Assembly (NCBI RefSeq): GCF_002795265.1
Contig: NZ_CP024870.1
Coordinates: 992,001 to 1,056,000, forward strand
DNA length: 64,000 nt
DNA from: Spiroplasma clarkii
GTDB taxonomy: Bacteria; Bacillota_I; Bacilli_A; Mycoplasmatales; Mycoplasmataceae
Reading direction: 5' to 3'
The position numbers and the translations under genes were made by a program. How positions within the stretch are numbered: the stretch's first letter is position 1; every line of letters begins with the position of its first letter. The notes under the pieces are model-generated. The model did no database searches, was not told where the DNA came from, and worked only from the letters and a program-made list of their open reading frames with translations. This document shows positions 16,539-55,833 of this stretch, piece by piece.

Positions 16539-17360
16539 TTAGTCCTTAAGGTGACTTACGACTGTTTTAATATTTCAGTCATATTTTTGTAAATAATCTT
16601 CAATTTCATTATCATTTGTTTTACCAGTTAATTCCTTCACAATGTTTATGCATCTTTGTTGCAACTTTTTGTTTGTTGCTTTAACATCAATCATTAAATT
16701 TTCAAAAACCTTGCCTTTTTTAATCATAATTGTGGTTGAAATCATATTGCAAACTAATTTTGTAGCAGTTCCTGCTTTCATGCGAGTAGATCCAGTTACA
16801 ACTTCAGCACCTGTGTCAATGCAAATAACATCCTCGCAGTAATTGGCAAATTCATTGTTTTTTGACATACAAAGAGCTACTGGTAGTACTCCAACTTTTG
16901 CTGCGTACTTCAATGCTCCAATTACATATGGAGTTCTTCCTGAGGCTCCAATTCCTACAATACAGTCATTGCTATTTAAATTAAACTTTTTGATATCTCT
17001 TGCAAAACCAGCGATGTCATCTTCAGCACCTTCAATTGGAGTTTTAATAGCCTCATCTCCTCCAGCAATTATGCCTATAAAAGTTGAATTGTCTCCATAG
17101 GTAGGTAAAATTTCACTAGCATCTAAAATTCCAATTCGACCACTTGTTCCAGCCCCTACATAAAAGATTCTTCCAGATGTTTTAACTTTGTTAAACATTT
17201 TATCAATTATGCTTGCTAACTTTGACAATTGCTCATTAATTGCTATTGCAACTTTTTGATCTTCAGAATTAATAATTTTTAAAATTTCTATTGTTGATGC
17301 TTTATCAATTTGCATGCTTTTGCTATTTCGTTTTTCAGTATCGATATTTTCTAATTTCAT
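16539..17360 (-). CDS. murQ: N-acetylmuramic acid 6-phosphate etherase
   Basis: A 273-residue cytosolic enzyme that splits the lactyl ether of MurNAc-6-P to give GlcNAc-6-P and D-lactate. The SIS-domain signature GAGTSGRIGILDASEILPT (residues 69-87) includes the Glu used in catalysis in this family; EGAEDD carries a second conserved Glu. STRMKAGTATKLVCNMIS is also diagnostic. It is about 25 residues shorter at the C terminus than usual. It starts 10 bases after the mupG stop, with an AGGGATG ribosome site. It is the last gene of murP-mupG-murQ. A second copy lies at 44.3-45.2 kb. Confidence 0.95.
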
Positions 17361-17370
17361 ACTAACATCC

Positions 17371-18423
17371 CTATTCTAAAATAAATTTAAATTCTTTGAT
17401 CAATTCACTGTTTTCAAGCATTCACTCACTGATTTCCACATTACCAATAATATTAAATGAACCATCATTTTTAGCAGTTTCTTTCCAAATATTAACCTCA
17501 CCACAATACCTAAGATTGTTTAGATTGTCAATTGTCACTGTTTTTGGTTCTATTCAACCAGCATTATTCTTTGGGTTAATTTTTTGATTGGTTTTTGTTA
17601 AACTTCTTGAACTTTCACTTCTAATAATATATAAACTCTGATCTGGCCTCACTTTATGAGACATTTTTAAGATTTCAATGTGTTCATCAAGAATTTCTTG
17701 ATTAATTTTGTTAAATCTAAGTTTGACAAAATTGTCTTGATAACTTGTCATTATTTTTAACTCTTCACTATTGGCCATTGCATCTCCAACACAAGCAATG
17801 TCAACTTTCATCATTAACAGTTCATTTAATTGCATATAAATGTCATAATTTCGGTGATTTTCTATGGTTGGCAAACCCTTAAATAAAGGTAATCTTGGTT
17901 TAAAATGTGAGCAAGTAAATGCTAAAACTTCAATTCCTAATGATTTATAGAATTTATTTTTTTCATAAAAATATTCTTCTGCTAACCCTGAAAAAGGTTT
18001 TGGATAAAAGTTATGAAAAACCCCTATTTGATTTGGGTTTAAACCCAAGTTCCTTAACTTATCAAATCCTTCTGCATCAATGGTTGATGCATTTAAAAAG
18101 ATTTTAAAGGTACTAGTTTTGCAAAGAGACACAATCTCTTGGTCAGAAAAACCATAATCCAATCTTAAACCATAAATTGAAATGCTACTTAAATCGAGTT
18201 CATCATAAACTTTTTTTGAAATATCTATAATTGCTTTCATTTTTAAAGAATCTATATAATTTAATAAAGTTTTAAACTGTTCTAAAAGTTTTAAATTAGC
18301 TTCAGGAATGTGTAGCGACATAAACACTAACTCAATTCCCTGATTTTTTGCTTCACTTATGTAATTAAAGTAATCAGCATCACTAATTCCTAAACCTGGA
18401 TAAACTGAAATTGCACTTTTCAT
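17371..18423 (-). CDS. mupG: DUF871/MupG-type 6-phospho-N-acetylmuramidase
   Basis: A 350-residue TIM-barrel protein starting SAISVYPGLGISDADYF. VFHNFYPKPFSGL and the C-terminal cyclophilin-like region (PDQSLYIIRSE) are typical of DUF871. In Staphylococcus aureus the member MupG hydrolyses MurNAc-6-P-GlcNAc into MurNAc-6-P and GlcNAc, and is encoded beside murQ, murP and murR. The same neighbours are found here, so this function is well supported by context. The ATG overlaps the murP stop (TAATG). It reads through TGA at 17554. Confidence 0.85.
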
Positions 18424-19982
18424 TATTTAAGATCAACCCCCTTAGTTCCAAAGAAATATGTTAATAAAAACCCTGATATATAAGTCACTACTAAACCAGA
18501 AAGATAAATCAGCATTCCAGTTCAAGGTAAACCATTACTTGCAGACATTAATGGAATTGCTAATAATCCACTTGGGCCAAGAGCAATTGTTCCTACATTA
18601 ATTCCAAATAAAGGCATTAATCCCATATATAAACCTCCAATTGCAGCACCGCAACATGCAGTAATAAAGGCTCTAAGTCTTGTTAACATAACTCCGTAAA
18701 TTAATGGTTCTCCAATACCCAGGAAACCAGGAACAATTGCAGCACCAATTTCTTGACGGATTTTTGAACCTTTTTTTGCTTTAAAGTATAGTGCTAAAGC
18801 AGCTCCAACTTGGCCAGCTCCTGCAACCGCTACCAGTGGGAACAAAGTATTTAAACCAGTATCTGCAATTAGCATCAAGTAGATTGGTGTGGCACCTTGA
18901 TGAACTCCAAACACCACTAATCATAATCAAACACCAGCAAGAATTGCTCCTAGTGGTGGAGTGGCTCACTTATTGGTTGTAACAACTTGGAAGAATTTTG
19001 ACATCCCCAAGAAAACATAACCTGTTAATGGTACCAATAAAACAAAGTTAACCAAAATCATTATGACACAAACTGAGAATGGTACCACAAATAATTTTGC
19101 TCCATCTGGAATAAATTTATTAAATTGTTTTTCTAAAACAGCAGCCACTCCTGCAACTGTAATTGCTCCAAAAATAGATCCAGTTAATCCGGCAGCTTTG
19201 CCATCCCTAAAGACTCCCACTGTAAATCAGTTTTTTGAAATATCTGTTATTGGTATTCCTAAAAAAGTCCCTGAATTACCATCAATTTGGAATATGTTTC
19301 CTATAATTGCTCCAAATGCTGGTGTGTACATTGCGGCTAGCAAAGCTCCAATGATTGGAGTTCCTCCAAATACTTTTGCTGTATTTCACCCAATCAAAAT
19401 ACATAAAATTTGAACTAATAATGTTAATAATAAAGTTGTAATATTAATTCAAGAATTAGAAACTTGGGTTAAATTATCTTGACCTACTGAAGTCAGAATA
19501 ATACTTCCAATTGCTTGTAAAACTCCAGTAGCTAAAAAAGCTGGAATAAACGGTGTAAATATTAAACTAATTTTGTTAAAGAAGTTTAAGATACTTGCTT
19601 TTGTTTTAGCACGATATCTTTGTTTAATGTCATGATTTTCTGTTTTAAAATTATTTTCATCTATTTTGTTAATGAGGTCTTTGTCTTCAACAGATAAATT
19701 GACATTGATAGCTTCAGTTTTTTGAGCATCAATCATTTTTCCAAAATCATTAGCAACTCTAGTTACAAACCCAGGTCCTAAAATAATTTGGTATTCATTT
19801 TGGTTAATGATAACTCCCATAACATTTTTTATTGATTTAAGATAATCAACATCAATTGTGCTTTCTTTTTTTACTGAGATTCGCAGCCTTGTCATACAGT
19901 TTGTATATGATTGAACTTGATTTTTGGCAAATGCTTTGGCAATATCTGCAGCAGTTTTTTTTGAATCTTTTTTTTCTTTCAT
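18423..19982 (-). CDS. murP: PTS EIIBC permease for MurNAc or MurNAc-GlcNAc
   Basis: A 519-residue membrane protein. The N-terminal EIIB domain has SYTNCMTRLRI with the phosphocysteine at residue 29. The C-terminal EIIC of the glucose/sucrose superfamily includes VFGVHQGATPIYLMLIADTG and PGFLGIGEPLIYGVMLTRL. No EIIA is attached, so a shared EIIA from elsewhere must supply phosphate. Position between murR and mupG-murQ indicates MurNAc or a MurNAc disaccharide as substrate, imported as the 6-phosphate. AAGGAGGG precedes the ATG. Confidence 0.85.
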
Positions 19983-20054
19983 GTAATCCCTCCTTGGTCT
20001 ACACTACTAGCATACTTCAAATGAAAAATAGTAAAAGTGATTTTGATTTGATAG

Positions 20055-20080
20055 TAAAAAAGTATCAACTCTTGATACTT
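20055..20080 (-). terminator. Hairpin at the murR 3' end
   Basis: AAGTATCAA (20060-20068) pairs with TTGATACTT (20072-20080), followed on the minus strand by TTTTTTAC. The stem overlaps the murR stop codon. It separates murR from murP, so it may be a partial terminator or attenuator for the downstream genes. Confidence 0.65.
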
Positions 20081-20921
20081 ATTTTTCAACTTCTGTAAAT
20101 TTTAAAATCCTACTGTATTTTTCTTTGTCTTCATTAATAATTGAAGAATATATGCAATCAATAGCAAACAAAATTGCAGTTCTTGAAGTTAAAGATGTGT
20201 GTCTAATAGTTGACTCATTTGATTGAACCACTAAATTAATATCTGAACTTTGTTGAACTGGATTATCTACATTTTTTGTGATTGAAATAATTTGGGGTTT
20301 ATTACTGCTCTCATCATTTTTTAAGAGTTTCAAGAGTCTTAAAATTTCTTCAGTAACTCCAGAATATGAAACTATAAAAATTATGTCATTTTTCCCTAAT
20401 AGTCTACTTAAAAAACTTAGATTGTGAATATCTTGAGAAATATTGCATATTATCCCCAATCTTTGCAATTTATTGTAAAAATCCCTGGCAACATTATAAG
20501 TTCCACCAAATCCCACCAAAATTATCCTATTACATTTGATGATTTGCTTTGAAATTGTGATAATTTTTTCTTGTTGTTGGTGCAATAAACTTGCAGTTTG
20601 ATCAATTGTTTTAACTAGTTGTTTGTGAATGTTTTCAACAATATCATTGTTGTTTGAATCAGAAATACCACTTTCACCAAGTCTTGTTTCTGAAACATTC
20701 TTGAGAATATATTTCATTTCTTTATAACTTTCAAGATTCAAGTACTTGATGAATCTATGGATTGTAGCCACACTTGTAAAAGTGTTTGTGGCAAATTCTT
20801 TTATGTTCATATTGTAAATTTCTTGAATGTGATTAATAATGTAATTTGAAATGTAAAAATAAATGTTTTTGCCATCTTTTGCTTCTTCAACTATTTTTTC
20901 GTATATATCAAATTGACTCAT
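20079..20921 (-). CDS. murR: RpiR-family transcriptional regulator
   Basis: A 280-residue regulator. The N-terminal HTH_6 region (IKEFATNTFTSVATIHRFIK) binds DNA. The C-terminal SIS domain (ILVGFGGTYNVARDFY, FIVSYSGVTEEILR) senses a sugar phosphate, in this context probably MurNAc-6-P. RpiR/MurR proteins usually repress the mur genes until the inducer appears. It is transcribed upstream of, and in the same direction as, murP. AAGAGGTAGGAA precedes its ATG. The symbol is based on context. Confidence 0.82.
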   Translation of the reverse strand: MSQFDIYEKIVEEAKDGKNIYFYISNYIINHIQEIYNMNIKEFATNTFTSVATIHRFIKYLNLESYKEMKYILKNVSETRLGESGISDSNNNDIVENIHKQLVKTIDQTASLLHQQQEKIITISKQIIKCNRIILVGFGGTYNVARDFYNKLQRLGIICNISQDIHNLSFLSRLLGKNDIIFIVSYSGVTEEILRLLKLLKNDESSNKPQIISITKNVDNPVQQSSDINLVVQSNESTIRHTSLTSRTAILFAIDCIYSSIINEDKEKYSRILKFTEVEK

Positions 20922-33803: not shown

Positions 33804-33863
33804 AAAAAAACCTCTTTCCTAACAATATTATTTTACATTCAATATAAATGTAATTTAATTTTT

Positions 33864-33878: not shown

Positions 33879-33886
33879 GGAAGTAC

Positions 33887-35313: not shown

Positions 35314-35327
35314 ATTTTTGGGAAAAT

Positions 35328-35356
35328 TAGACTTCTAGTGGAATTTCGTATATAAT
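35328..35356 (+). promoter_or_regulatory. Sigma-70-type promoter of the small membrane protein gene
   Basis: TTAGAC (35328) and TATAAT (35351) are separated by 17 bases. AAAGGAGG and the ATG follow within 20 bases. The -10 is perfect and the -35 is weak. Confidence 0.6.
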
Positions 35357-35374
35357 AATTAAAGGAGGTTTTTT

Positions 35375-35554: not shown

Positions 35555-35571
35555 ATCTAAATTTTATATTT

Positions 35572-35606
35572 AAAAACCACAATTGCTTTAAATTGTGGTT
35601 TTTTAT
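35572..35606 (+). terminator. Terminator of the small membrane protein gene
   Basis: AAAAACCACAATT pairs with AATTGTGGTTTTT (13-bp stem, 6-base loop), ending in a T run. Confidence 0.88.
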
Positions 35607-35736
35607 ATTTTTTGATTTATTAGTGAAAAGTCAACTTTATTACTTCACTTCATTAAAATTTAGATTTTGAATAATTCAACAAATCAAAACTGCAAATTAT
35701 AGTAACTAGAATTTTAATCATAACAAATTGATTTTA

Positions 35737-36393
35737 CTATTTACTTGCAATAATTTGTAGAATTGCATCATATATATCATCAAGAGTACTACCATATTTA
35801 TAAAAATCATCTTTAAAGTTATCATAACCGCAATCCTTGCATGCTTTGGTAATTTGTCTTACTTGTTTGTCTTCAACTTTATTGGTCTTTGTTCTGATAC
35901 ACAATCAATCGTCTTCATCACAAAATGTTATTAAATAATAAACTAGACAGCTGTAAAATATTTTTTTGGTTTGAGAATTAGTTATTTTTTTAAAATTCTC
36001 ATCAATTCGTAAGAATATGTCACTTGAGTTAACATCTTGTTCACCATTCAATAATTTTTCATAAATTATTTCATAGAACTCTCCATACTTCTCCATTTTT
36101 TCAATAATTTTAAAGCTAGATAACACATCAAGATACTGCCTCATAGCACTTTTAGAAACATATTCCTCATTTTTTGCTGCTGGATTTACAATTTTTTTAC
36201 CACATAACATTTGATACTTTTTATCTTTTCGAAAAACTTCAATATAATTTGTTCTTTCATTGCTTGGCAATTTCAAATACTTATCATAAAACCTATCAAC
36301 AATTGAAGTAATTTTAGTTTTAATATTTCAAAATTTGAACTCTTTATCAAAATCAAATAAATCTATAATTTTTTGTACCTTATTTAATTCCAT
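35737..36393 (-). CDS. Unknown protein coupled to the HEPN-DUF262 gene
   Basis: A 218-residue protein, soluble and mostly helical, read through TGA at 35905. No family recognised. Motifs of note are LCGKKIVNPAAKN and, near the end, CIRTKTNKVE and CKDCGYDNF. Its ATG at 36393 overlaps the end of the DUF262 fusion gene by 14 bases and is preceded by GGTGGATGATATTT, so it belongs to the same operon and may be an accessory subunit of that defence system. Confidence 0.65.
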
Positions 36394-38836: not shown

Positions 38837-40145
38837 TTTTATTTTCCTCCATTTCAACAATTTTATTAAAGATTGCTACTAATACATTTACCACAATAGA
38901 ATTGCCAGCTTGTCGATATAAAATTGAATTTTTGATTAAATCTAATTTTTTGATATTATCAAAGTCTTTTTCACTAAACCCCATTAATAGAAAGGTTTCT
39001 CTTGGGGTTAATAGACGATACTTGGCTTTATTTTCTAGTTTTTCAAGAGAGGTACCACATAAGTCCACAACCCCTGCATTAGGATGCCTATCTTGTTTTG
39101 TGGTAATTGTTCGACATAAATTTAAAAAGTAACCATTAGATCTCTCATCCACCGAATATATTTTCCTTCCATTATTTGATTCAATTATTTTTTCTTCACT
39201 AAGACTGAACAGCTTGTGATTGCAAGAATACATTGTCTTCCTACTTGGTGTTCGGTTTGGTGTTGATTCAATTGCTTCTTCACGATATTTTGCATGATTG
39301 TAGTCAACTTTGATTATTTCGTATATTTTTTTAGAAATTTTTAATTTTTTTGATATGTCAGTTGGGTTCTTCTTTTCTCTTATCAGCCCTGTTCTTGTAT
39401 AAGTGTCATGGAACAACTTATCTTCTCCTCTAACACTTAAAGCATAAACTCTTTCACGACTCTGAGGAATTCCATAATCTTTTGCATTTAACACATAAGT
39501 TTGAGTGTTATACCCTAGTTCATGCAAGAAATCAATCCACTCTTGGTAATCTGCTTTGTGCCTCTCAGAAATCATATTTCTCACATTTTCAAGCAATAGA
39601 TATTTTGGTAGTTTATTAATGGAGCATAATTCATTTAATATTCTCTCAATTTCTCATAATAATCCACTTCTTGTCCCTGAACCTTTAGCCATACCTTGGT
39701 TGAAGCCATGTAAACTACCTGCCACAGAAAGATCTTGACAAGGAAAAGAATAAGTTAACATATCAAATTCCCCAATGTTTTTTATAAGTTCAGCACCTTT
39801 TACATTTAAAATACTACCTTGATTATTGCAATTTTTGATTGCACTATATAATAATTCTCTTACTTTTCTATCTTTTCTCACTAAATTGCTATTTGAAATT
39901 GGAGTTTTTGAGTCACTTGAGTGATCGAATTTACAAAGAAATTCATTAATTGTTTCATCATCTAGTTTATTTGCAACATTTTTACTATTGTGGTGCATTG
40001 CATTATAACTAATGTTAGCCCACATATCTCACTCACTTGTGCCTGCTATCTCAAAGTCCAAAATTTTCTTGTCTTTTAATATTTTTAAAGCTTTATGTTG
40101 AGCGCCAATTCCGGCAAATGTCTCAAATACTCTAATTTTTAGCAT
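38829..40145 (-). CDS. DNA cytosine-C5 methyltransferase
   Basis: A 438-residue enzyme: motif I VFETFAGIGAQHKAL, motif IV TYSFPCQDLSVAGS, motif VI LLLENVRNM, motif VIII IPQSRERVYAL, and C-terminal LTPRETFLLMGF and RQAGNSIVVNVL. AAGGGGGT precedes the ATG. It heads a three-gene unit with the HEPN-DUF262-DUF1524 protein and the 218-residue protein. It resembles the methylase at 62.4-63.5 kb in layout, with the same ETFAGIG and YSFPCQDLS wording, so the two are probably related. Confidence 0.92.
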
Positions 40146-42744: not shown

Positions 42745-43854
42745 TTAAATTAACTGAAATTTAAATTTTTTATTAGCATAGAGATAATTTAATAAAATCA
42801 AGTTTTCTTTAGAGACTTTAGCAACTAAATTTTTCTTTTTGTCATAGGGAATTTTTTTTGTAACAATTTGTAATTCATTCTTATACAATCCTGCAGCATT
42901 ATTACCTATCAATACATCACCAATTTCAAAAAAATCCTTGCTCTTTAAAACCCTAGCTTTATTTTCTAGATTTATGTATTTTACTCTTGGTTGAGTTGAG
43001 CGAATGAAAAATTCATTTGTATCTGAGCGATTAAAATGAACATTGTTAAAAATAATTTCCTTTTCCACTTCACTAATTTCTTTGACAGTTTCGATATCTA
43101 ATTGAATTATATATGGATCTAATTTTGAAATCTTTTTGATTTCAGAAATTGCTGCAGGAGCATTTGCAAAGATGAGATCATCAACCAAACTAGTGGCTCA
43201 CACAACTTGAGTCTGAGTTGCTGCTGAAAGTTCTCGACAAACTTCAAGAGTTGGAGTTCCATCATTTATCAATCAAGGACCAGCTGAACTTTTATTTTCA
43301 GATGACAAGTAACTTGTAGTTTTAATTCTGTTCATTCAAAAATTTATTGATGTATTTTGAAATTGCTTTAAACTCATCCCTGTAAATTTTTGGGGATAAA
43401 AATTTTGACACCCTCACAAATTTGATAATTTTGGTTGATAGAATAAAATTGTTTCTAAAACTTTATCATCATTGCTCATTTGAATTTCAATTTTAATGTC
43501 ATACTCATTGTAAGTAAGGTCTGCAATAATTTTTGGACTAGGTATAACATCAAACCTAATGACATCAATTCCTAGTTTATTAAAAAAACTTAAATCATAA
43601 TTTTTAATTTCTAAAATGTAAAAAGTTTTTTGTGTTGTGTCCACTGTGATTTCATATCCTAATTTCTTAGCAATAGCAAAACATTTTTTATACATTGTCA
43701 AAAGCTATTCTTTATTATTTGAAAACATATTTATTTGTAAAAATGTTGCATATAACCTTTCCACACCAAATGTTTTTGCCATTTTAAGGTACTCAATTGT
43801 TTTATCAATCCCCATTTTTTCAGGATAAATTGCAATACCAATTCTTTTTTTCAT
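42745..43854 (-). pseudogene. DUF871/MupG-like gene with in-frame TAG
   Basis: The ATG at 43854 follows AGGAGGTAATT and starts MKKRIGIAIYPEKMGIDK, as in MupG proteins. After about 49 codons there is TAG at 43705. The same frame then continues to 42745 with WGCQNFYPQKFTGM and FFIRSTQPRVKY, which are DUF871 landmarks (about 369 codons in all). A TTG at 43701 could restart the main part. It is closest to the plus-strand paralogue at 48.8-49.9 kb. The nonsense codon probably inactivates it. It lies beyond the EIIA gene terminator. Confidence 0.75.
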
Positions 43855-43899
43855 AATTACCTCCTAAATTTTTTGATAAACTATTTTTATATTTAAATT

Positions 43900-43929
43900 A
43901 AAAAAATCAAGTCAAAATTTGACTTGATT
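43900..43929 (-). terminator. Terminator after the lactose-type EIIA gene
   Basis: AATCAAGTCAAA (43905-43916) pairs with TTTGACTTGATT (43918-43929), followed on the minus strand by seven T. Confidence 0.8.
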
Positions 43930-43934
43930 AAATT

Positions 43935-44237
43935 TTAGTCTTTGAATAAATCAATTACTGCTTCTGCAAGATCTACTGTTGTTTGTGCATTGAGCATTTG
44001 ATCTTCAGCATGCATTAATAATAATTTAAATTCAATTTTTTCTCCCAAAGCTTCCTTTTGAATTATTTCAAAATGTTCTTTAGAAGCTACAATCAAATGC
44101 TCTTTTGCCTCTTTTAATAAAGCATTTGCTTTTTCAAATTCTTTTACTTTTGTTTCTTTTAATGCTTGAATGGCATTGGATTTTGCCACACCTGAATTGA
44201 TGATAATTTCCATTGAAATTTTTTCATAATCGAGCAT
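43935..44237 (-). CDS. PTS lactose/cellobiose-type EIIA
   Basis: A 100-residue all-helical EIIA. The phosphorylated His is residue 76 in LLMHAEDQMLNA, matching LacF/CelC proteins. It passes phosphate from HPr to the separate EIIB encoded upstream at 47.5 kb. GGAGGAAAATAA precedes the ATG at 44237, which lies just after the murQ2 stop. It is the last gene of the EIIB-EIIC-membrane protein-murQ-EIIA transcript. Confidence 0.88.
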   Translation of the reverse strand: MLDYEKISMEIIINSGVAKSNAIQALKETKVKEFEKANALLKEAKEHLIVASKEHFEIIQKEALGEKIEFKLLLMHAEDQMLNAQTTVDLAEAVIDLFKD

Positions 44238-44259
44238 TTTATTTTCCTCCTTAAAAACT

Positions 44260-45171
44260 TTAGACATTCTTTATTTTTTTCTCAATCAATGTTTTGATAT
44301 TACTTGTGGATTCTAAAATTATTTTTGCTTGTGTTAAATCAACTTCAAACAAAAGCATCACTACTGTTAAACGAACATCTCTGGTTTCTTTTAAAATCTT
44401 TTCAATTTTTAAACTATCTAATTCATTAGTGATTAACTGAACAATATTAACTGCCCGATAAAATAATTTTTCATTGCTAATTCTTACATCAATCATTAAG
44501 TTTCCATAAGTTTTTCCTTTTTTAATCATCAATGTTGTTGAGATCATATTTAAAACTAATTTTGTAGCAGTCCCTGCCTTTAATCTTGTAGATCCTGAAA
44601 TTACTTCTGGACCAGAATTAATTTCAATAACATCATCTGCAAACTCTCTGAATTTTGAACATTTAGACATACTCAACCCAATTGCATAGGCATTTTTACT
44701 TTTGGCATATTTTAAAGCTCCAATTGAGTAAGGTGTTCTACCTGAAGCACCAATTGCAATTACAGTATCTTTTGGTGTTAAGTTATAGTCTTTTAAATCT
44801 AATTCTGCTTGATTTTCATCATCTTCAGCTGCCTCAACTGGTTTTCTTAAAGCACTTTCACCTCCAGCAATTATCCCAATGATTTCATCATGAGAATTAA
44901 ATGTTGGTAACATTTCTGAAGCATCAAGTACTCCAAGTCTTCCTGATGTCCCAGCCCCCAGATAAAAAACTCTGCCTCCAGTTTTAAAATTCTTCTGGAT
45001 CTTTTCAATGATTGCGGCAATATTTTTTATTTCAGCTTTGACTGCACAAGCCACATTGGTGTCTTCGTCATTTATTAATTCTAAAATATTTATTATTGGC
45101 ATTTGGTCAATATTTGTTGTTTTATCGTTAATTTGTTCAGTGGAAATTTTGTTTATATCTGCTTGTTTCAT
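44260..45171 (-). CDS. murQ: N-acetylmuramic acid 6-phosphate etherase, second copy
   Basis: A 303-residue full-length MurQ. GAGTSGRLGVLDASEMLPT, EAAEDDENQAE and STRLKAGTATKLVLNMIST carry the sugar-phosphate loop and catalytic Glu residues. Unlike the 16.5-kb copy it keeps the C-terminal helical domain (VRLTVVMLLFEVDLTQA). GAGGGG precedes the ATG. It lies within a lactose/cellobiose-type PTS operon, suggesting that the disaccharide imported there contains MurNAc. Confidence 0.95.
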   Translation of the reverse strand: MKQADINKISTEQINDKTTNIDQMPIINILELINDEDTNVACAVKAEIKNIAAIIEKIQKNFKTGGRVFYLGAGTSGRLGVLDASEMLPTFNSHDEIIGIIAGGESALRKPVEAAEDDENQAELDLKDYNLTPKDTVIAIGASGRTPYSIGALKYAKSKNAYAIGLSMSKCSKFREFADDVIEINSGPEVISGSTRLKAGTATKLVLNMISTTLMIKKGKTYGNLMIDVRISNEKLFYRAVNIVQLITNELDSLKIEKILKETRDVRLTVVMLLFEVDLTQAKIILESTSNIKTLIEKKIKNV

Positions 45172-45293
45172 ATTTTCCCCTCAAATAGCTTGATTCTAGT
45201 ATTTTTTAATGTTTACAATTTAATTTTTATTAGTATACTAAGTTGAAACTGTAAATTTCTTTGATTACAATTAAGCATCTTTAAATTCATTAT

Positions 45294-45602
45294 TTAAAAT
45301 AATGCTGCTCCATCATCCCCATTGTGAAATTTTCTCTGTCTCTTGTTAGAAAAAGTGTTGTAAACATACCCGACATAGACTCCAAAAGTCATGGCAACAA
45401 TTGTATTTGTTCAAATGTTTATTCCAATAAGTAGGTATAAGAGCAAACAGATTAAGATTTCTAAGACAATTCCGCAAGCTGCAAATAGTGTTAGTCTACT
45501 GCCAGCTTTGTATTTTAAAAATTTATGAAAGATTAATGTGTAAATTAAGAAAGTAATTAATCCTGCTCCAATGGCAATGGCATATCCAATTTCTTCGCTC
45601 AT
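45294..45602 (-). CDS. Small membrane protein of the PTS/murQ operon
   Basis: A 102-residue protein with three hydrophobic stretches (IGYAIAIGAGLITFLIYTL, CGIVLEILICLLLYLLIG and TIVAMTFGVYVGYVY) and a polar tail. Family not recognised. Its ATG overlaps the EIIC stop (TAATG), so it is translationally coupled to the permease and may assist it. It reads through one TGA. Confidence 0.75.
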
Positions 45603-47365
45603 TAATTTATCAGCTCCATTTTTTTCAGATAAAACTCATCTTGTAGTTCGGCACGAACTTGTCAATATTTATTTTTTAATTCTAAAATTTCCATTTTTAT
45701 ATTTTCAACCTGTTGTTTGTCTTGTTGTGATTTTAAAAGTTGATTCTTAGTTTCAAGATCTGTTTTAAAACCATTAACAATTTTAAGTTTATCTTCTTTG
45801 TATGTTGAATTTAATTGTGCAAAAGCAGATTTGAATTCAGCTTTTTGAGTTTTAATTTTATTTTTTTCTGCTTCAAAGTTTGATTGTTTTAAAATATTTT
45901 GGTTCTCTTTGTACTGTAATTTTGCTTGAATTTTTTCTTCTTTGGCTTGTTTAATTAGCTCATGATTTAATGATTTTTTACTAAAAACTGTGTACCAAAC
46001 ACTTTGAACAAAGTTATATGGTTCAAAAGCACTTTGATCATTTGCTAATAATTTTTCTTCTTTTAAAATTTGTTTGTCATAAGCAATTAAGAATGGTGCA
46101 TAAACCACTGTGGAAACAATAATTGTGGAAACTGCAGGTACCCATCCAAATGGATTTACCCCACTTGATAACACAGCCCCAATTGGTCCAGGTAAAGTTC
46201 ATGGAGCTAAAGCAACTCATTGAATTGCAAAGATTTTAACTCATAAAGCATTAACTAAAATTGCAATTTGGGGTACAAAAATAAATGGTAAGATTAAGTA
46301 TAAGTTCAACATAATTGGCATTCCAAAAATTACTGGTTCATTAATGTTGAAAATACCTGGAATTGCACTTGTTTTGGCAATTGATTTTACTTGTTTTGAT
46401 TTTGCTAAAAGTAAGGCTGCAATAATTAATCCTAATGTAGCACCACTACCTCCAACTCAAACCCCTCATTGCATAAATTGTTCTGGATATCTGTAAGGAA
46501 TTTCAGATCCATTTAAGAAAGCGTCAGCATTTGCTTCAATAGCTTGAGTTCAAAATGGTCTCATAATTGAACCCACTAAACTAGCTCCACTTAGTCCAAA
46601 AATCCAAAAGAAAGTAATTAGCAAGGCAATCACCATTGTTCCTCCAAGGGTGTCATTTAACACAGATTGTAATGGTGAAAGGATTTTTCCCATATCATTG
46701 ATAAAGTCAAATCCAACAATAAATCTTAATGTCATAACAATTAGTGCATAAATTGCTAGTGGGATTAAAATAATAAATGAATTAGCAACAGCTGCTGGCA
46801 CTTGTCTTGGCATTCTTAAAGTAATATTGTATTTTTTACATAATCTGTAAAATTCAAAAATTAATATTCCTGAAATAATTGCTACAAACAATCCATTTGA
46901 ACCTAAGGCTCCAATTTTGATTGTGTTTGTGGCCACATCAACTCCAACTCACATCATAAATCCAATTAATGATAGAACTCCTGAAGTGGTTGGATCCATT
47001 TTATATGATTTTGCTAATTCTGATCCAATACAAAATGAAGTAACAACTGCAAGTAGCCCCATAGTCATTCTGTAAACTTGTAAAAAAGCTGTATTTAATT
47101 TTGCTGGCATAATACTTCCCAAAGTGTCTCCATCTTTAAGACCTATTGGGAAATTTAATAAAATTAAGAATAAGGCACCAATAATAATTAGTGGAATGTT
47201 AGCAACAACAGCATTTCTAATAGCCACCAAGTGTCTTTGATTGGCAAAGCGATTCATTTTAGGAACCACACTGTTGTTAATGTAACCATTCATTACTCTT
47301 TGTTTGTTTTTTGAAATCTCAACTTGAAGTTGATCTTTTTGAGAATTATTTAAATCTGATTTCAT
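45602..47365 (-). CDS. PTS lactose/cellobiose-type EIIC with coiled-coil tail
   Basis: A 587-residue permease. HLVAIRNAVVANIPLIIIGA and GIFNINEPVIFGMPI (the conserved EIIC substrate loop) identify the CelB/LicC group. After the usual end near residue 430, about 140 extra residues form a charged Lys/Glu/Gln-rich coiled coil without membrane segments, ending at 45602. Such a tail is not typical of the family. The ribosome site is GGAG before the ATG at 47365. Likely substrate: a MurNAc-containing disaccharide, by context. Confidence 0.85.
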
Positions 47366-47459
47366 TTTTCTCCTTTTTTATATGTAAAATTTTAATAATT
47401 TATAATTGTTTAATAATCTACATAGCCATTTTGCTGTAAAAAATTAGCTTATGAAACTA

Positions 47460-47771
47460 TTACTGGTTTAAAACTTTAATAACCTCGTCTCATAATTCCT
47501 TAGCTTTATTTGGGTAATATAAATTTGGTGGAATTTGTAAACTAACAATTTGTTTTTCATCACAAATTTTTTTGATTTCAGGATAGCGAAATCTAATTTG
47601 AGGTGAAACTAAGATGACAGCATAACTGTCAAATTCATCTGGATTAAATCCCCCGGCAGCAATTCCCATGGCACTTCATTTATACCCTTCTTTAATTGAA
47701 AAGTTATCTAAGGCCTGGGCTACTGCAGTTGATGAAAATCCACCTGAACAACAAAGTAAAGCTTTTTTCAT
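47460..47771 (-). CDS. PTS lactose/cellobiose-type EIIB
   Basis: A 103-residue cytosolic EIIB beginning MKKALLCCSGGFSSTAVAQ. The phosphocysteine is Cys8 in C-x-x-G-x-S. MGIAAGG and VILVSPQIRFRYPEIKK fit the LacB/CelA family. AGGAGACATAGAT precedes the ATG. It is the first PTS subunit after the RpiR regulator; a palindrome about 90 bases upstream could be the operator. Confidence 0.85.
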
Positions 47772-47857
47772 ATCTATGTCTCCTTTCGCTATTATAATAA
47801 TTTATTTATTTGCAACAATGTAAAAAACCATTGATTCTATAACCAATTTTAAAAAAC

Positions 47858-47869
47858 GAAACTAGTTTC
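47858..47869 (-). promoter_or_regulatory. Palindrome GAAACTAGTTTC, candidate operator
   Basis: A perfect 12-base palindrome just downstream of the rpiR stop and upstream of the EIIB gene. The core AAACTAGTTT recurs upstream of rpiR itself at 48677-48688. Confidence 0.5.
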
Positions 47870-47871
47870 AA

Positions 47872-48645
47872 CTAATAGGAATTTGAAAATATTATTTTTT
47901 GATACTTTTCTGGATCTGATTCATAAATACACAGTGATAATTTTAAAATTACATAAAAAATTGTGATTCGAGCTTCAATGGAAATAACTCTTGCTAAACC
48001 TTCTTTACTATCAATTCTTAACACCAAATCTGAGAGTTCAAACAAATCGCTATCATAATTTCGAGTGATTGCCATGATTTTCACTTCATTTTTATGAGCA
48101 GATTTAACTATTTTTAATACCTCTTTGGTGTTTCCTGTATATGAAATTGCAATTATTAAGTCATTTTGATTTAATTTTTTTGAATAAACATATGAATAAT
48201 GTTGATCAGTTTCAAAAAAAACATCAAAACCAAATCGCAATAGTCGATTGCGCAGTTCAAGAGCTGCTGGAACATTTCCTCCAATTGAAACAATCATAAT
48301 TTTTTGGGAATTTTTAATTAATTGAGTTGCCTGGTCATAATCAGTTGCAGACACTAAATTATCAGTGCTTTCTAAAGAAGCAATGACATTTTTATTTAAA
48401 TTGGAACTTAATTTTTCATCGTTGTCAATATTGTTAAGTTCATTCATTAAAATGAACTTAAATTCTCGAAACCCCTCTCACCCATTTTGCTTGAAATAGC
48501 GAGTAATGGTTGATTTACTTACAAAACATTTGGCAGCAATTTCATTTATCTCTAAACTTTTACTCTTTAAATTATCAAAAATATAATCTATAAATGGTTC
48601 TTCAGCTTTTTTTTGTAATAAAAATTGGTATGCACTTTTTTTCAC
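47872..48645 (-). CDS. RpiR-family regulator of the PTS/murQ2 operon
   Basis: A 257-residue regulator with N-terminal helix-turn-helix (INEIAAKCFVSKSTITRYFK) and C-terminal SIS domain (MIVSIGGNVPAALELRNRLL, IAISYTGNTKEVLK). The GTG at 48645 follows AGGAG. The upstream region is shared with the divergent mupG/anmK genes. It probably senses an amino-sugar phosphate and controls both directions through the AAACTAGTTT sites. Confidence 0.85.
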
Positions 48646-48676
48646 AAGTTTTCTCCTTTACGAAAAATTAAATCCC

Positions 48677-48688
48677 AAAACTAGTTTT
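48677..48688. promoter_or_regulatory. Palindrome AAAACTAGTTTT, candidate operator
   Basis: A perfect 12-base palindrome in the divergent region between the RpiR gene and the mupG/anmK genes, sharing the core AAACTAGTTT with 47858-47869. Confidence 0.5.
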
Positions 48689-48774
48689 ATTTTATTAAAT
48701 TACTTGCAACTATTCAACTAAAAACCCTTAACAATTTATTTTATATTAAGATTTTTTCAATAGAAAGGACTGAT

Positions 48775-49890
48775 ATTATCAGAAAACTAGGAATTGCAGT
48801 TTATCCAGAAAAAATGGATCTGGAAGACATGAAAAAATATATAACAACAGCAAAAGCCAACAATTTCAAAATAGTTTGAACAGCACTTTTACAGCTAGAT
48901 GAACATGAACTTGCTAGCAAAACTGGGACAATTCAAAAATATAAAGAAATCTTAAAGTTTTCAAAAGAAAATGATATGATTAACATCATTGATGTCAATC
49001 AAAGAATTTTAAATGCTATTAATTTTGATGGTGATTTTAAATTTTTTGCTGAATTAAATATTGATGTTGTCAGATTTGACTCACCAATGAGTCCACAACA
49101 ATTAGCAAACTTAACCTTTAATGATTATGGCATTAAAATTGAGTTAAACATGGATAACAATGATTATCTGTTAGATGAAACTTTACATTATGGAGGAATT
49201 AAGGATAACATTTTAGGAAGTCATAACTTTTATCCACAAAAATATTGTGGAATAAGTAAGGCCTTTTATCAAACAACTTCTAAAAAATTTAAAAATCTCG
49301 GTATTGAAACAAGTGCTTTTGTTTCAACAAAAAATCCAAAAAGGATTGCCAACTGAGATGTTGACGATTTTTGTTGCACTTTAGAAGATCTTAGGGGCTT
49401 AAATTTAATTTCTCAAGTCAATTACTTATGGAGCAGTAACTTAACAGATAATGTTATCATTTGTAATGCTTATGCCTCTAATAAAGAATTAGAAGCACTA
49501 GGAAAATTAAATCCCTACTATGTTAATTTACAAGTTGTTCTGCAAACAAATATTTCCGACATTGAAAAGACAATCATTTTTGATGAAGAACATTTTCGAA
49601 GAGCAGACATTAACCCCTATTTTATTCGATCAACCCAAAGCAGAGTTAAGTATAAAAGCAAAGCCTTTCCACCCAACCAGACAAAACAAAGTTATGAAAT
49701 TGGAGATGTTTTGATTGGAAATGATGATTTCTCACTTTACAAAGGTGAATTGCAGTTAGCAATTGCTAAATCAGAAGCTGATGCTCGTAAAAACTTAGTT
49801 GCTCAAGTAATTGTTGATGACTTACTTTCTCTTGAAAACATCAATTCATACACAAAGTTTAAATTTATTTTGGCTGATGAAATGCATTAG
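48775..49890 (+). CDS. DUF871/MupG-like 6-phospho-muramidase, third copy
   Basis: A 371-residue protein: RKLGIAVYPEKMDLEDM, SHNFYPQKYCGISKAFY and PYFIRSTQSRVKY are DUF871/MupG landmarks. Alignment with its paralogue places the first residue at ATT (48775), directly after AGAAAGGACTGAT. No ATG, GTG or TTG fits at that point; the next ATG in frame is 13 codons later, inside the conserved first strand. Translation from ATT, or a lost start codon, must be considered. It overlaps anmK by 14 bases, forming a mupG-anmK unit divergent from the RpiR regulator. Confidence 0.75.
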
Positions 49891-51010
49891 TTTAATGTCG
49901 GGAACATCACTTGATGGCATTGATGGTTTATTATGTGATGTTACTTTTGAAAACAATAATTTTAAAATTAAAGAATTAGACTTTGTAAATATTGAATATC
50001 CTAAAAAATTAAAAGAGAAATTGTTAAAAAATATAAATGTTTTAACTAGTAGAGTTGATGAAATTTGTGAACTGAACTTTGAACTTGCAAATCTTGCTAC
50101 TGAACTAGTGACAATTATTTTACAAAAAAGTAAACTAAGTTCTCAACAAATTGATTATATTGCAATGCATGGTCAAACAATGTACCATATTCCACCAAAC
50201 AATCAATTCAATCAAACTCCTTCAACTTTACAAATTGCAGATCCTTGTGTGGTATCTACAAAAACTAAAATTAAAGTAGTCAATAATTTTCGAAGTGCAG
50301 ATATTGCTAATGGCGGTCAAGGTGCACCACTTGTTCCAATTGCTGATCATTTCTTATTTAGAGATAAAAATAAACTAAGAATTATGGTAAATATTGGGGG
50401 CATTTCAAACTTTTCAGTCCTTGATCCAAATCTAAGCTATTGCTTTGGTTATGATGTTGGTCCCGGAAATGTTCTTATTGACTTAATTGCAAATCAATAT
50501 CTTCAACTAGAATTTGACCCTGGAGGTCAAAATGCAGCAAAAGGAACTCTTGATGAAAAGGTTTTTAAAAAAATTATTGAACATGACTTTTTTCAACAGG
50601 CTGCTCCTAAATCTACAGGGAGAGAACTATTTAATTTAGAATTTATTAATCAATATTTTGATTTAAAATCTCAAAAAGTTGTAGATATCTTAAACACTTG
50701 TACACAAGTCACGGCAGCCGTGATTGCAACTGAAGCACTTAAATTTTATAACACTAAATTTCAATGCGAATTAATTATTTGTGGTGGAGGTGCTTATAAT
50801 GCTTTCTTAGTCAAACAAATCGAAGAAAGATTAAATAACAAGTTTATTGTAAAAACTCTTGAAGAAATTGGTTTTAATGCAAAATCAAAAGAATGTGTAG
50901 CTTTTGCTATTCTTGGCTATTTATCAATAAATGATATTAAAATTAATATCAAAAAAACTACTGGTGGAATTGGAGCTGTAGTGTTAGGTTCAATTTCTAA
51001 AAATTATTAA
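49877..51010 (+). CDS. anmK: Anhydro-N-acetylmuramic acid kinase
   Basis: A 377-residue kinase. MSGTSLDGIDGLLCDV at the start is the phosphate-binding signature; IAMHGQTMYH, NIGGISNFSVL, GYDVGPGNVLID and CGGGAYN are all diagnostic of AnmK. It converts 1,6-anhydro-MurNAc and ATP to MurNAc-6-P, the substrate of MurQ. The ATG at 49877 lies inside the end of the mupG-like gene, so translation is coupled. Anhydro-MurNAc is made only from peptidoglycan by lytic transglycosylases, so the sugar must come from other bacteria. Confidence 0.95.
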   Translation: MKCISLMSGTSLDGIDGLLCDVTFENNNFKIKELDFVNIEYPKKLKEKLLKNINVLTSRVDEICELNFELANLATELVTIILQKSKLSSQQIDYIAMHGQTMYHIPPNNQFNQTPSTLQIADPCVVSTKTKIKVVNNFRSADIANGGQGAPLVPIADHFLFRDKNKLRIMVNIGGISNFSVLDPNLSYCFGYDVGPGNVLIDLIANQYLQLEFDPGGQNAAKGTLDEKVFKKIIEHDFFQQAAPKSTGRELFNLEFINQYFDLKSQKVVDILNTCTQVTAAVIATEALKFYNTKFQCELIICGGGAYNAFLVKQIEERLNNKFIVKTLEEIGFNAKSKECVAFAILGYLSINDIKINIKKTTGGIGAVVLGSISKNY

Positions 51011-51061: not shown

Positions 51062-51754
51062 CTATTGTCCATAATATGAATCTTTACCATGCTTGCGAAA
51101 ATAATGCTTATCAAGTAATTCTTGTTTGACATTATTTTTATAACCATTTAACAAATAAGATTGAAAAGTCATTTGCCCAACCGTTTCTAACACTTTGGCA
51201 TATTCAACAGCTTTATATGGTGATTCTCCAAAAGTAAATGGTCCATGATTATTAACTAGAATGGCCGGCATTGCTTGAGGATCAAGATTTCTTTCTGCAA
51301 AAGTCGCTGCAATCAAAACTCCTGTTTCATATTCATAGTTATCTTTAATTTTTTGCATATCAAGGTGTTTTGTACAAGGTACTGGGCCATAAAAATTATC
51401 AGCATGAGTAGTACCTTGGGCTGGTAAATCAACCCCAGCCTGACACCAAGAAGTTGCATAGATTGAATGAGTGTGACAAATACCTTGTAAAAAGCGATAT
51501 TTGTTATACAAGTAAATATGAGTGGGAGCATCTGTTGAAGGTTTTAATTTACCTTCAACCACTTGATAGTTTAGATCCATCACAACCATATCTGCTGGAG
51601 TCAGTTTTTCATAACTTACCCCGCTTGGTTTTATTACCATTAAGCCTGATTCTCAATCCATTCCTGAAACATTACCTCAAGTAAAAGTCACTAAATTTAG
51701 TTTTTCTAAGAGCATGTTTGCTTCATAAACTTCTTGTTTTAACTTTTCTAACAC
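51062..51754 (-). CDS. ulaF: L-ribulose-5-phosphate 4-epimerase
   Basis: A 230-residue class II aldolase-type epimerase, the normal length for UlaF/AraD. GNVSGMD and KPSGVSYEKLTP bind the sugar phosphate; CHTHSIYATSW supplies zinc-binding His residues; LVNNHGPFTFG is the C-terminal signature. It makes D-xylulose-5-P, the end product of ascorbate use. The GTG at 51754 overlaps the ulaE stop and follows AGGGTGAG. It is the last gene of the ula operon. Confidence 0.93.
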
Positions 51755-52623
51755 AGTTCTCACCCTGCCTTTTCAAACAAATTCAAAACATAGTTTTTGG
51801 CTTTTTTTAATCTTTCTACAGGTCTGTCAAAATCTTCATACCAAGCTTCAATGACAAAACTACCTTGATAACCTGCACTCTTTAAATACTCAAAGATTTT
51901 TAAGAAATCTACACATCCTGCCCCAAATTCAACATTTTTAAATTTACCTGGAAAAGAATTAGTAACTGGCAAAGTATCTTTAATGTGTAGTGCCACAGTG
52001 TCATGAAAACCACTTGATAACTCACTTAAATAAGTTTGTTGATGTCATGCTGCTAAATTCCCTAAATCTGGGTAAACGCTCAATCAAGGAGAAGGACAGG
52101 CTTTTTTAACTGCTAAATACTTGGTTAAAGAATTAATGAATTCATCATCCATAATTTCAATTGATAAACCTACAGCATAGCGATTTGCCATTTGTAACCC
52201 TGCTTGAAGATTTTCTAAAAATCAAGCTTGGGTCTCTGCATCTTTTGCTTCATAATAAACATCATAACCTGCTAGTTGAATTATTCGCACATTCAACTTA
52301 AATGCCAATTGAATACATTTTTCTAAAAGTTGTAGTGATTTTTGACGAGTTGCAAGGTCATGACTACCCATTGGGTAGCGACGTTGTCCTGAAAAACAGA
52401 TTGAGCGGATAAAGACTTGATGTTTTTGAGAAAGTTTTAAAATCTCTTGGATTTGCTCCTCACTTCAATCTAATCTTTGCAAACGAGTATCACTTTCATC
52501 AATTGACATTTCAATAAAGTCAAACCCCAGTTGAGCTGCAGTTTTAAATTTTTCAGCTCAATTCTCACCTGGAGGCAAAGCTTTTTCATAAACCCCTAAA
52601 AAATTCTGAGGGAAATTACGCAT
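51748..52623 (-). CDS. ulaE: L-xylulose-5-phosphate 3-epimerase
   Basis: A 291-residue TIM-barrel enzyme. FIEMSIDESDTRLQRLDW, IRSICFSGQRRYPMGS, IIQLAGYDVYY and NVEFGAGCVDF match UlaE/SgaU, including the metal-binding Glu/Asp/His set. It converts L-xylulose-5-P to L-ribulose-5-P. The ATG at 52623 overlaps the ulaD stop by 8 bases. Codons TGA (Trp) occur at 51760 and elsewhere. Confidence 0.92.
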
Positions 52624-53272
52624 TTTCTCATTTCCTTGCTAATTGTTTTTGAAAACTTTCAGCTGCTTGTTGGGGATCTGCTGCATCTCGAATTGAACGC
52701 CCAGCAATAATAATATAAATTGGTAAGTGTTTAAACAGATCTAAGTCTGCTTCAGTGATACCCCCAGTGATAGTAACTTTAAAGCCCATATCACAAAGTT
52801 TAGTAATTTTGGTAATATCTGCTGCTCCTCACCCGACTCCAGCTGCTTGAGCATCTCTTGAACGGTGGTAAACCACTTGTTCAATTCCAGCAGCTTTTCA
52901 AGCTGCTGCTTGTTGAAAATCTCAAGTTCCAGTTAATTCAATTTGTACATCTCCTTGATAAGTTTTTGCAACTTCCAGTGCACCAGTGACTGTTGGTAAA
53001 TCAGCACAACAAATCACAGTTGTTAGATGAGCACCCACTTCAAAGAACATTTTTGAGACAATTTGTCCAGCATCAGCAATTTTTGCGTCTGCTAAAATGA
53101 TTTTATTTGGATACTTATCTTTAATAATTTTGACAGCAATTTTGCCTTCAGCCAGCAGTAAGATTGTCCCAATCTCAATGATATCAACCTTTTCTCCAAC
53201 ACTAGCTAGAGTTTTTAAAGCATCTGGTAATGATAAATTATCTAAAGCTACCTGTAATAATGGTTTTTTCAT
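52616..53272 (-). CDS. ulaD: 3-keto-L-gulonate-6-phosphate decarboxylase
   Basis: A 218-residue OMP-decarboxylase-fold protein. [10 protein letters not shown] gives the D-x-K-x-x-D active-site motif; [12 protein letters not shown] and TITGGI complete the phosphate site. It decarboxylates 3-keto-L-gulonate-6-P to L-xylulose-5-P. It reads through TGA at 52922. It sits between the EIIA and UlaE genes. Confidence 0.93.
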
Positions 53273-53285
53273 GTTTTAACCTCCT

Positions 53286-53759
53286 TTATTTTAGATACTT
53301 AAAGTAATCAATTGCTTTTATAATTTGAATAATTTCATCAACGGATTGAGCTTGGGCACATTTTTCAACAACTTCTTGATTTTCAAAGATTGCTACAATT
53401 TGGGGTAAAGCAACTTCTAGGTGAACTTCACTATTTTTAGCTGCAAACCCAATTAAGACTGAAACTTTATGAGTGTCAAAGTAAACTGGTTCTTTTAAGG
53501 TTAGTAAACTAAATCCATCTCCCAATGCTCCTGCTTTTGAATCAGCATGAGGCATAGCAAGGTTTGGACAAATTAAGTAGTAAGGACCATGAGCATTGGT
53601 GTTATCAATGACCCCTTGAACATAACTTGGTTTAACTATTTGGTTTTTTATTAATGGTTCAAAACAAAGTTGGACTGCAGCAATTCAATCTTTACAAGTT
53701 TGTTGCACCACAATTGATGCATTTGCAATTAATGATTGTAAAAAATCTAATTGTGCCAT
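53286..53759 (-). CDS. ulaC: PTS ascorbate-type EIIA
   Basis: A 157-residue PTS_IIA type 2 protein with the phosphorylated His at residue 71 in NLAMPHADSK. It donates phosphate to UlaB. The ATG at 53759 overlaps the ulaB stop (TAATG). It is a paralogue of the EIIA at 12.7 kb. Confidence 0.9.
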
Positions 53760-54037
53760 TATATGTTAAATGCTTGTTTTAATCCAATTTCAATTTGAGC
53801 TTCGTCCATTAAGTTTTCTAAACCAACCACAAAAGCAGAACAGTCATCTAAATCTTCTTCTAAGTAAGTTGAACATAACACCACATCATAGTTATCTGCA
53901 ATCCCTTTGGCTTCACCAATTGAAGAGGTATCAACTTTACCATCAATGCCTAATTTTTCTAAAACTTTTTCAACTTTTATCTTGATCATCAGCGAACTGC
54001 CCATTCCATTACCGCAAGCACATAATATTTTTTTCAT
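53759..54037 (-). CDS. ulaB: PTS ascorbate-type EIIB
   Basis: A 92-residue EIIB beginning MKKILCACGNGMGSSLM, with the phosphocysteine at residue 8. AAAGGTGAAAAAT precedes the ATG at 54037. It overlaps ulaC, and follows ulaA by 20 bases. It phosphorylates ascorbate during transport. Confidence 0.9.
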   Translation of the reverse strand: MKKILCACGNGMGSSLMIKIKVEKVLEKLGIDGKVDTSSIGEAKGIADNYDVVLCSTYLEEDLDDCSAFVVGLENLMDEAQIEIGLKQAFNI

Positions 54038-54057
54038 ATTTTTCACCTTTTTTTCTA

Positions 54058-55818: not shown

Positions 55819-55833
55819 AAAAATCACACTCCC

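What the first reader, a model, noticed from the sequence alone, without database searches (positions are those of the whole stretch)
42745..51010. Second, different MurNAc-related locus with a lactose/cellobiose-type PTS, murQ, mupG paralogues and anmK
An RpiR regulator is divergent from mupG-anmK and leads into EIIB-EIIC-membrane protein-murQ-EIIA. A lac-type PTS imports disaccharides, MupG-like enzymes split MurNAc-6-P disaccharides, and AnmK acts on 1,6-anhydro-MurNAc. Together this suggests a route for a wall disaccharide such as GlcNAc-anhydroMurNAc, distinct from the 16-21 kb locus. I know of no described transporter of this PTS class for such sugars.
Basis: inference. Interest (0 to 1): 0.8.

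Follow-up and report, generated by a model that had tools for sequence, protein, structure and literature searches.

The report
Sugar-import locus for cell-wall disaccharides
A bacterium that has no cell wall carries a gene cluster that looks built to import and burn a sugar pair taken from other bacteria's walls, and the same unstudied cluster turns up across many Gram-positive bacteria, so it could be a missing wall-recycling route.

Summary
Read with TGA as Trp, 42.7-51.0 kb of a wall-less, Spiroplasma-type mollicute (closed 1.56 Mb) encodes RpiR, a complete lactose/cellobiose-family PTS (EIIB, EIIC, EIIA), a small membrane protein, MurQ, and divergent GH170 (MupG-like) and AnmK. The second GH170 gene is cut by an in-frame TAG. 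The set is no accident: among the 80 best named EIIC relatives, 38 have anmK, 33 murQ and 60 the same GH170 type within 9 kb (Bacillus, Listeria, Vagococcus, Clostridioides), and two other mollicutes have the whole set plus a secreted AmiA-like amidase. I found no paper describing it. AnhydroMurNAc has no free 6-OH, so the PTS must phosphorylate the GlcNAc. Both GH170s belong to the lac-PTS-linked clade, not the MurP-linked one. In four relatives ChbG plus GH4, which act on GlcNAc-6P ends, stand in for GH170. Best reading: peptide-free GlcNAc-anhydroMurNAc (or GlcNAc-MurNAc) is imported as GlcNAc-6P-X and split by GH170; AnmK then MurQ return the muramyl half to GlcNAc-6P, consumed by NagA/NagB (both present). 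Specificity is inferred, not shown. New variant of a known kind.

The parts
47872..48645 (-). rpiR2, MurR/RpiR-family regulator (HTH + SIS sugar-phosphate domain), divergent from mupG-A/anmK
   Evidence: HTH_6 E=6.5e-9, SIS E=1.8e-14
47460..47771 (-). EIIB, lac/cellobiose family, phospho-Cys loop CSGG intact
   Evidence: PF02302 23.6 bits, exactly at the cut-off; pts-lac TIGR00853 E=5e-11; Cys conserved
45602..47365 (-). EIIC, lac/cellobiose family, plus a ~145-residue charged C-terminal tail; nearest solved relative is bcChbC (diacetylchitobiose)
   Evidence: PF02378 E=3e-49, lacE 312 bits; 3QNQ E=7e-67; bcChbC His (GIHG) is Ser only in this clade
45294..45602 (-). small membrane protein, start overlaps the EIIC stop; similar-sized membrane proteins sit beside EIIC in many relatives
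   Evidence: no Pfam hit; similar proteins
44260..45171 (-). murQ2, MurNAc-6-phosphate etherase
   Evidence: TIGR00274 316.5 bits over cut-off 302; DASE and EAAED acid motifs conserved
43935..44237 (-). EIIA, lac/cellobiose family (ATG 44237 after AAGGAGG; longest frame starts at 44267), His of MHAEDQ intact
   Evidence: PF02255 E=1e-28
43905..43929 (-). terminator-like hairpin after EIIA, separating mupG-B
   Evidence: 11-pair stem with T tail
42745..43854 (-). mupG-B, GH170, interrupted by in-frame TAG (codon 50, 43705-43707); remainder open, conserved residues kept
   Evidence: MupG_N/MupG_C hits; intact orthologues in three related genomes
48787..49890 (+). mupG-A, GH170 of the lac-PTS-linked clade; probable ATT start
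   Evidence: MupG_N E=3e-63, MupG_C E=1e-32; 1X7F 255 bits versus 2P0O 50; model pLDDT 93, best fold match 1X7F
49877..51010 (+). anmK, anhydro-MurNAc kinase (start overlaps the mupG-A end; longer TTG frame from 49811)
   Evidence: PF03702 E=4e-98; AnmK 3CQY 197 bits versus levoglucosan kinase 168; Asp of the DTGPGN-type motif kept
48678..48687 (.). AAACTAGTTT palindrome between rpiR2 and mupG-A, candidate RpiR operator
   Evidence: only 2 copies in 64 kb, both in gaps flanking rpiR2; 4 of 100 shuffles have 2 anywhere; binding is inference
47859..47868 (.). second AAACTAGTTT palindrome, between rpiR2 and EIIB
16539..20921 (-). separate MurNAc locus for comparison: rpiR1-murP-mupG-C-murQ1, canonical S. 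aureus-type gene set
   Evidence: mupG-C falls with MurP-linked GH170s

Best explanation
This is an uptake and breakdown locus for peptide-free peptidoglycan disaccharides with GlcNAc at the non-reducing end, chiefly GlcNAc-1,6-anhydroMurNAc and possibly GlcNAc-MurNAc. The lac-family EIIB/EIIC/EIIA imports the disaccharide and phosphorylates O6 of GlcNAc (inferred). The lac-PTS-type GH170, MupG-A, splits GlcNAc-6P-X into GlcNAc-6P and (anhydro)MurNAc (inferred). AnmK turns anhydroMurNAc into MurNAc-6P and MurQ turns that into GlcNAc-6P plus D-lactate (activities follow from the named families). NagA and NagB, both encoded at G000:1196-1198 kb, feed GlcNAc-6P into glycolysis. RpiR2 controls both divergent units (inferred). 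The cell makes no wall, so the sugar must be scavenged from other bacteria, from fragments already stripped of peptide.
For: Parts intact. Recurrent linkage: of the best 80 named EIIC relatives 38 have anmK, 33 murQ and 60 an A-type GH170 within 9 kb. Two mollicutes of another family have AmiA-like amidase, MurQ, EIIA, EIIB, EIIC, small TM protein, GH170 and AnmK with a divergent RpiR. GlcNAc is the phosphorylated end: anhydroMurNAc has no free 6-OH (chemistry); MupG-A/B lie outside the MurP-linked clade; in the four murQ/anmK loci with ChbG, GH170 is absent and GH4 present, and ChbG never co-occurs with GH170 (0 of 50; Fisher p=0.001, two of the four near-identical), and ChbG plus GH4 act on the GlcNAc-6P/GlcN-6P end (PMC12791066). 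GH4 oxidises C3, which is etherified in MurNAc (established mechanism, own knowledge). Nearest solved EIIC is the diacetylchitobiose transporter bcChbC. A BadF-type (MurK/NagK-like) kinase is in 51 of 63 murQ/anmK loci against 6 of 34 others. NagA/NagB intact; no Mur ligase apart from one weak hit.
Against: No substrate was tested. No BadF-type kinase sits in this locus (looked for only locally), so plain GlcNAc-MurNAc would leave MurNAc unphosphorylated unless a kinase lies elsewhere. This genome has no PF07313 amidase; other amidases were not searched. Same-genus species keep lac PTS + GH170 without any murQ, so the PTS class alone does not imply muramyl sugars. The window AnmK is on a long branch and just under the NCBIfam cut-off (381.7 vs 387). 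S. aureus MupG and L. paracasei ChbE sequences were not in hand, so the clade of both is inferred from gene context.
Confidence: 0.6

Rival explanations
1. The PTS imports diacetylchitobiose (host chitin or N-glycan cores) as in L. paracasei chb; murQ and anmK merely sit in the same regulon or handle sugars that enter by MurP.
For: GH170 plus cellobiose-class PTS is required for diacetylchitobiose in L. paracasei (PMC12791066); EIIC is nearest in PDB to bcChbC; species G002, G005, G016 have related clusters and no murQ; the likely arthropod host offers chitin (general knowledge of Spiroplasma).
Against: murQ and anmK are repeatedly interleaved with this EIIC family in distant genera, including an amidase-bearing version in other mollicutes. 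The bcChbC GIHG-motif His is replaced by Ser only in the clade of this EIIC.
Confidence: 0.17
2. One reading: the PTS imports MurNAc-GlcNAc, giving MurNAc-6P-GlcNAc, and the MupG paralogues release MurNAc-6P for MurQ, as in S. aureus but with another PTS class.
For: GH170's only biochemically characterised member does this (PMC6262408); MurQ in the locus.
Against: AnmK would have no substrate; the genome already has a MurP/MupG-C/MurQ1 set for this; MupG-A/B are outside the MurP-linked clade; GH4+ChbG in place of GH170 in relatives needs a free C3-OH at the phosphorylated end.
Confidence: 0.12
3. The locus is decaying: one GH170 already has a stop codon and the other an odd start, so little or no flux passes through it in this strain.
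For: TAG in mupG-B; no ATG/GTG/TTG at the mupG-A start; a decayed murQ fragment near the orthologous cluster in G171.
Against: All other genes are open with key residues kept; the mupG-B frame is open after the TAG; ATT with a good ribosome-binding site can start translation under code 4.
Confidence: 0.08

Closest known systems
S. aureus MurP-MupG-MurQ recovery of MurNAc-GlcNAc (PMC6262408)
   Same: PTS uptake with phosphorylation, GH170 hydrolase, MurQ, RpiR-type regulator
   Different: Glc-family EIIBC instead of lac-family; C-type GH170; no AnmK; opposite end of the disaccharide phosphorylated if the reading here is right. The 16.5-20.9 kb locus of this window is the real match
L. paracasei chb cluster, diacetylchitobiose (PMC12791066)
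   Same: cellobiose-class EIIA/B/C with a GH170 hydrolase needed for growth
   Different: no murQ or anmK; DUF3284 protein present there
E. coli chb operon (ChbBCA, GH4 ChbF, ChbG deacetylase; as summarised in PMC12791066)
   Same: lac-family PTS; ChbG+GH4 stand in for GH170 in four murQ/anmK relatives found here
   Different: chitosugars only as described; no murQ/anmK in that operon
B. coagulans CELO2 with celX (DUF871) (PMC6271610)
   Same: lac-type PTS with a GH170
   Different: assigned to cellobiose from expression in E. coli; no muramyl genes reported
Gram-negative AmpG/NagZ/AnmK/MurQ recycling
   Same: GlcNAc-anhydroMurNAc reaches AnmK and MurQ
   Different: AmpG permease and NagZ on an unphosphorylated sugar instead of a PTS and a 6-phospho-glycosidase

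Membership tests
Lactose/cellobiose-family PTS (EIIA/EIIB/EIIC) | three components of the lac family with phospho-Cys in EIIB and phospho-His in EIIA | tested here: met
   EIIB hit sits exactly at the Pfam cut-off
Lactose/cellobiose-family PTS (EIIA/EIIB/EIIC) | EIIC fold family with the NINEP/E motif | tested here: met
   3QNQ E=7e-67
S. aureus MurP/MupG-type MurNAc-GlcNAc recovery | Glc-family MurP (PRK09586-type EIIBC) in the operon | tested here: not met
   locus has lac-family EIIC; MurP is at 18.4-20.0 kb
S. aureus MurP/MupG-type MurNAc-GlcNAc recovery | GH170 of the MurP-linked clade | tested here: not met
   MupG-A/B in lac-PTS clade, MupG-C with MurP-linked ones; S. aureus MupG itself not in the tree
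MurQ etherase | equivalog score and the two catalytic Glu motifs | tested here: met
   TIGR00274 316.5 over 302; motifs
AnmK | AnmK family score; closer to AnmK than to levoglucosan kinase | tested here: met
   Pfam 329 bits over 24; 197 versus 168 bits; best NCBIfam equivalog 381.7 against cut-off 387
AnmK | activity on 1,6-anhydroMurNAc | not testable with these tools
   needs enzyme assay
chb (GH170-type) diacetylchitobiose system | cellobiose-class PTS with lac-linked GH170 | tested here: met
   ChbE sequence itself not compared
chb (GH170-type) diacetylchitobiose system | diacetylchitobiose as substrate | not testable with these tools
   needs uptake or phosphorylation assay

The most novel reading that the evidence does not exclude
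A lac-family PTS, a clade of GH170 acting as a 6-phospho-beta-N-acetylglucosaminidase on GlcNAc-6P-(anhydro)MurNAc, AnmK and MurQ form a widespread undescribed Firmicutes pathway for lytic-transglycosylase and lysozyme products, kept by wall-less mollicutes purely to eat other bacteria's peptidoglycan.
Probability: 0.5. Interest if true: 0.75.

Novelty: new variant of a known kind. Interest (0 to 1): 0.62.

Why it matters
Gram-positive recycling is described for MurNAc and MurNAc-GlcNAc through MurP; how peptide-free GlcNAc-anhydroMurNAc would be reclaimed has no transporter that I found. This gene set names one and makes it testable in tractable Bacillus-type relatives. It assigns a likely job to many genes now annotated 'cellobiose PTS' and 'MupG', and it shows wall-less bacteria keeping a wall-sugar diet. 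It also predicts that GH170 has two specificities, one for each end of the wall disaccharide.

Tried and rejected
Table 11 reading rejected: genes break at TGA. Idea that the genus-wide lac-PTS + GH170 pairing means MurNAc use: rejected, since G002, G005 and G016 have it without murQ. Single origin of the EIIC-murQ link: not supported, label changes 8 times on the EIIC tree, at least 4 forced. Search for a genome-encoded PF07313 amidase: none in this genome. Donor of anmK: unresolved, long branch; a genome-contig scan with AnmK alone found nothing. GH170 sites separating muramyl from other lac-linked loci: only weak candidates (residues 32, 276, 294), not used. Rfam and tRNA scans of the window: nothing.
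Full report
What is there. The window is bases 992001-1056000 of a single closed 1.56-Mb contig. Reading frames are whole only with TGA as Trp; the Mur-ligase search of the genome gives one weak hit (27.9 bits), as expected for a wall-less mollicute. I call it Spiroplasma-type from code, size and gene content; the name was not available. On the minus strand lie rpiR2, EIIB, EIIC, a small membrane protein whose start overlaps the EIIC stop, murQ2 and EIIA, then a terminator-like hairpin and mupG-B; on the plus strand mupG-A and anmK. mupG-B has an in-frame TAG at codon 50. mupG-A appears to begin at ATT. The palindrome AAACTAGTTT occurs twice in 64 kb, once in each gap flanking rpiR2.

A second, ordinary MurNAc locus (rpiR1, murP, mupG-C, murQ1) lies at 16.5-20.9 kb. 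The genome has a fourth GH170 at 855.9 kb next to another lac PTS. NagA and NagB are intact.

Is the grouping meaningful? In the genus, all 20 genomes have a GH170 and most have it beside a lac-type EIIC, but only this genome has anmK, and G002, G005 and G016 have no murQ. Across 395 genomes of the class, 10 of the 40 best EIIC relatives (at least 200 bits) lie beside anmK (about 0.2 expected, p about 1e-14 under independence). Among the 80 best named relatives, 38 have anmK, 33 murQ and 60 an A-type GH170 within 9 kb; hosts include Peribacillus, Rossellomorea, Listeria grandensis and booriae, Vagococcus, Clostridioides difficile, Enterococcus sulfureus, Brevibacillus and Sporomusa. Three species of a sister genus (G138, G095, G171) have the orthologous EIIC with two GH170s and a kinase, so the two GH170s arose by a duplication older than the split. 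Two mollicutes of another family, G185 and G361, have AmiA-like lipoprotein, murQ, EIIA, EIIB, EIIC, TM protein, GH170 and anmK with a divergent rpiR; that amidase would free the sugar from its peptide outside the cell (inference).

Which end is phosphorylated? Four lines point to GlcNAc. First, 1,6-anhydroMurNAc has its O6 in the anhydro bridge, so a PTS can only phosphorylate the GlcNAc of GlcNAc-anhydroMurNAc (chemistry). Second, the GH170 tree separates MurP-linked enzymes (with mupG-C) from lac-PTS-linked ones (with mupG-A and -B), and a GH170 paired with a cellobiose-class PTS is needed for diacetylchitobiose use in L. paracasei (PMC12791066). One exception should be noted: four loci with two EIICs carry a GH170 close to the MurP-linked clade beside murQ and anmK (L103, L106, L111, L118). 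Third, in 63 murQ/anmK loci with this EIIC, ChbG occurs in four, all lacking GH170 and all having GH4 (Fisher p 0.001; two of the four are near-copies). ChbG plus GH4 is the E. coli way of opening a GlcNAc-6P disaccharide (PMC12791066), and GH4 chemistry needs a free 3-OH, which MurNAc lacks. Fourth, the closest solved EIIC is the diacetylchitobiose transporter bcChbC. A BadF-type kinase, the family of clostridial MurK (recalled), is in 51 of 63 such loci against 6 of 34 others; this locus lacks it and has AnmK, which favours the anhydro sugar here.

Mechanism, with status. Import and O6 phosphorylation of GlcNAc in GlcNAc-anhydroMurNAc: inferred. GH170 cleavage to GlcNAc-6P and anhydroMurNAc: inferred. 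AnmK to MurNAc-6P, MurQ to GlcNAc-6P and D-lactate, NagA/NagB to fructose-6P: from established family functions, genes shown. RpiR control through AAACTAGTTT: inferred.

Structure. The MupG-A model (pLDDT 93) matches 1X7F (E 1e-41) and 2P0O, then beta-N-acetylhexosaminidase barrels far behind. This confirms the fold, not the specificity. Within EIIC, the His of the bcChbC GIHG motif is Ser only in this locus and its three sister-genus orthologues among 47 compared, so this conserved site has changed in this clade; the effect is unknown.

Literature. MurNAc genes murP and murQ are known in Spiroplasma (PMC3563533, PMC5726471, PMC12453411). The one held paper naming the AnmK kinase, PTS and cellobiose together is a C. 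difficile expression study that does not discuss the cluster (PMC11633334). Subscription papers were not searchable, so absence of a description is provisional.

Limits. No assay exists. S. aureus MupG and L. paracasei ChbE sequences were not in hand, so their clade is inferred from operon context. Genome counts are not corrected for phylogeny. Whether a kinase or another amidase lies elsewhere in this genome was not tested.

Noticed in passing
window 51062-55827: Ascorbate-type cluster next door (UlaF/E/D-like enzymes, EIIA, EIIC-GAT permease), an unusual carbon source for a mollicute.
   Followed up: no
window 23629-28486: MzaB/MzaC-like proteins beside a C5 methyltransferase and an HNH nuclease: MZA-like anti-phage island.
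   Followed up: no
window 33863-40145: MutH-domain protein and a C5 cytosine methyltransferase, a probable MutH-type restriction-modification unit.
   Followed up: no
window 45602-46050: Long charged C-terminal tail on EIIC (about 145 residues), also seen on other mollicute lac EIICs of varied length.
   Followed up: no
L037 and L038: In G005/G002 the lac PTS + GH170 cluster carries a BadF-like kinase but no murQ, and in G005 (L037) a GH29 alpha-fucosidase (a similar protein is in L038), suggesting fucosylated chitobiose (N-glycan core) use.
   Followed up: partly
L039, L040, L041: Lac PTS + GH170 clusters with amidohydrolase, SelA-like and aldolase-like genes and no murQ in the cluster: another substrate class for GH170.
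   Followed up: no
L102, L104, L107, L108, L112: Long (about 820-875 aa) proteins with an N-terminal GH170 domain, next to anmK and murQ but no PTS.
   Followed up: no
G171:C1:1012956-1013369: Decayed murQ fragment close to the orthologous PTS cluster while an intact murQ lies about 8 kb away.
   Followed up: partly
window 15143-16204: 353-residue protein downstream of murQ1 with no Pfam or NCBIfam match.
   Followed up: no
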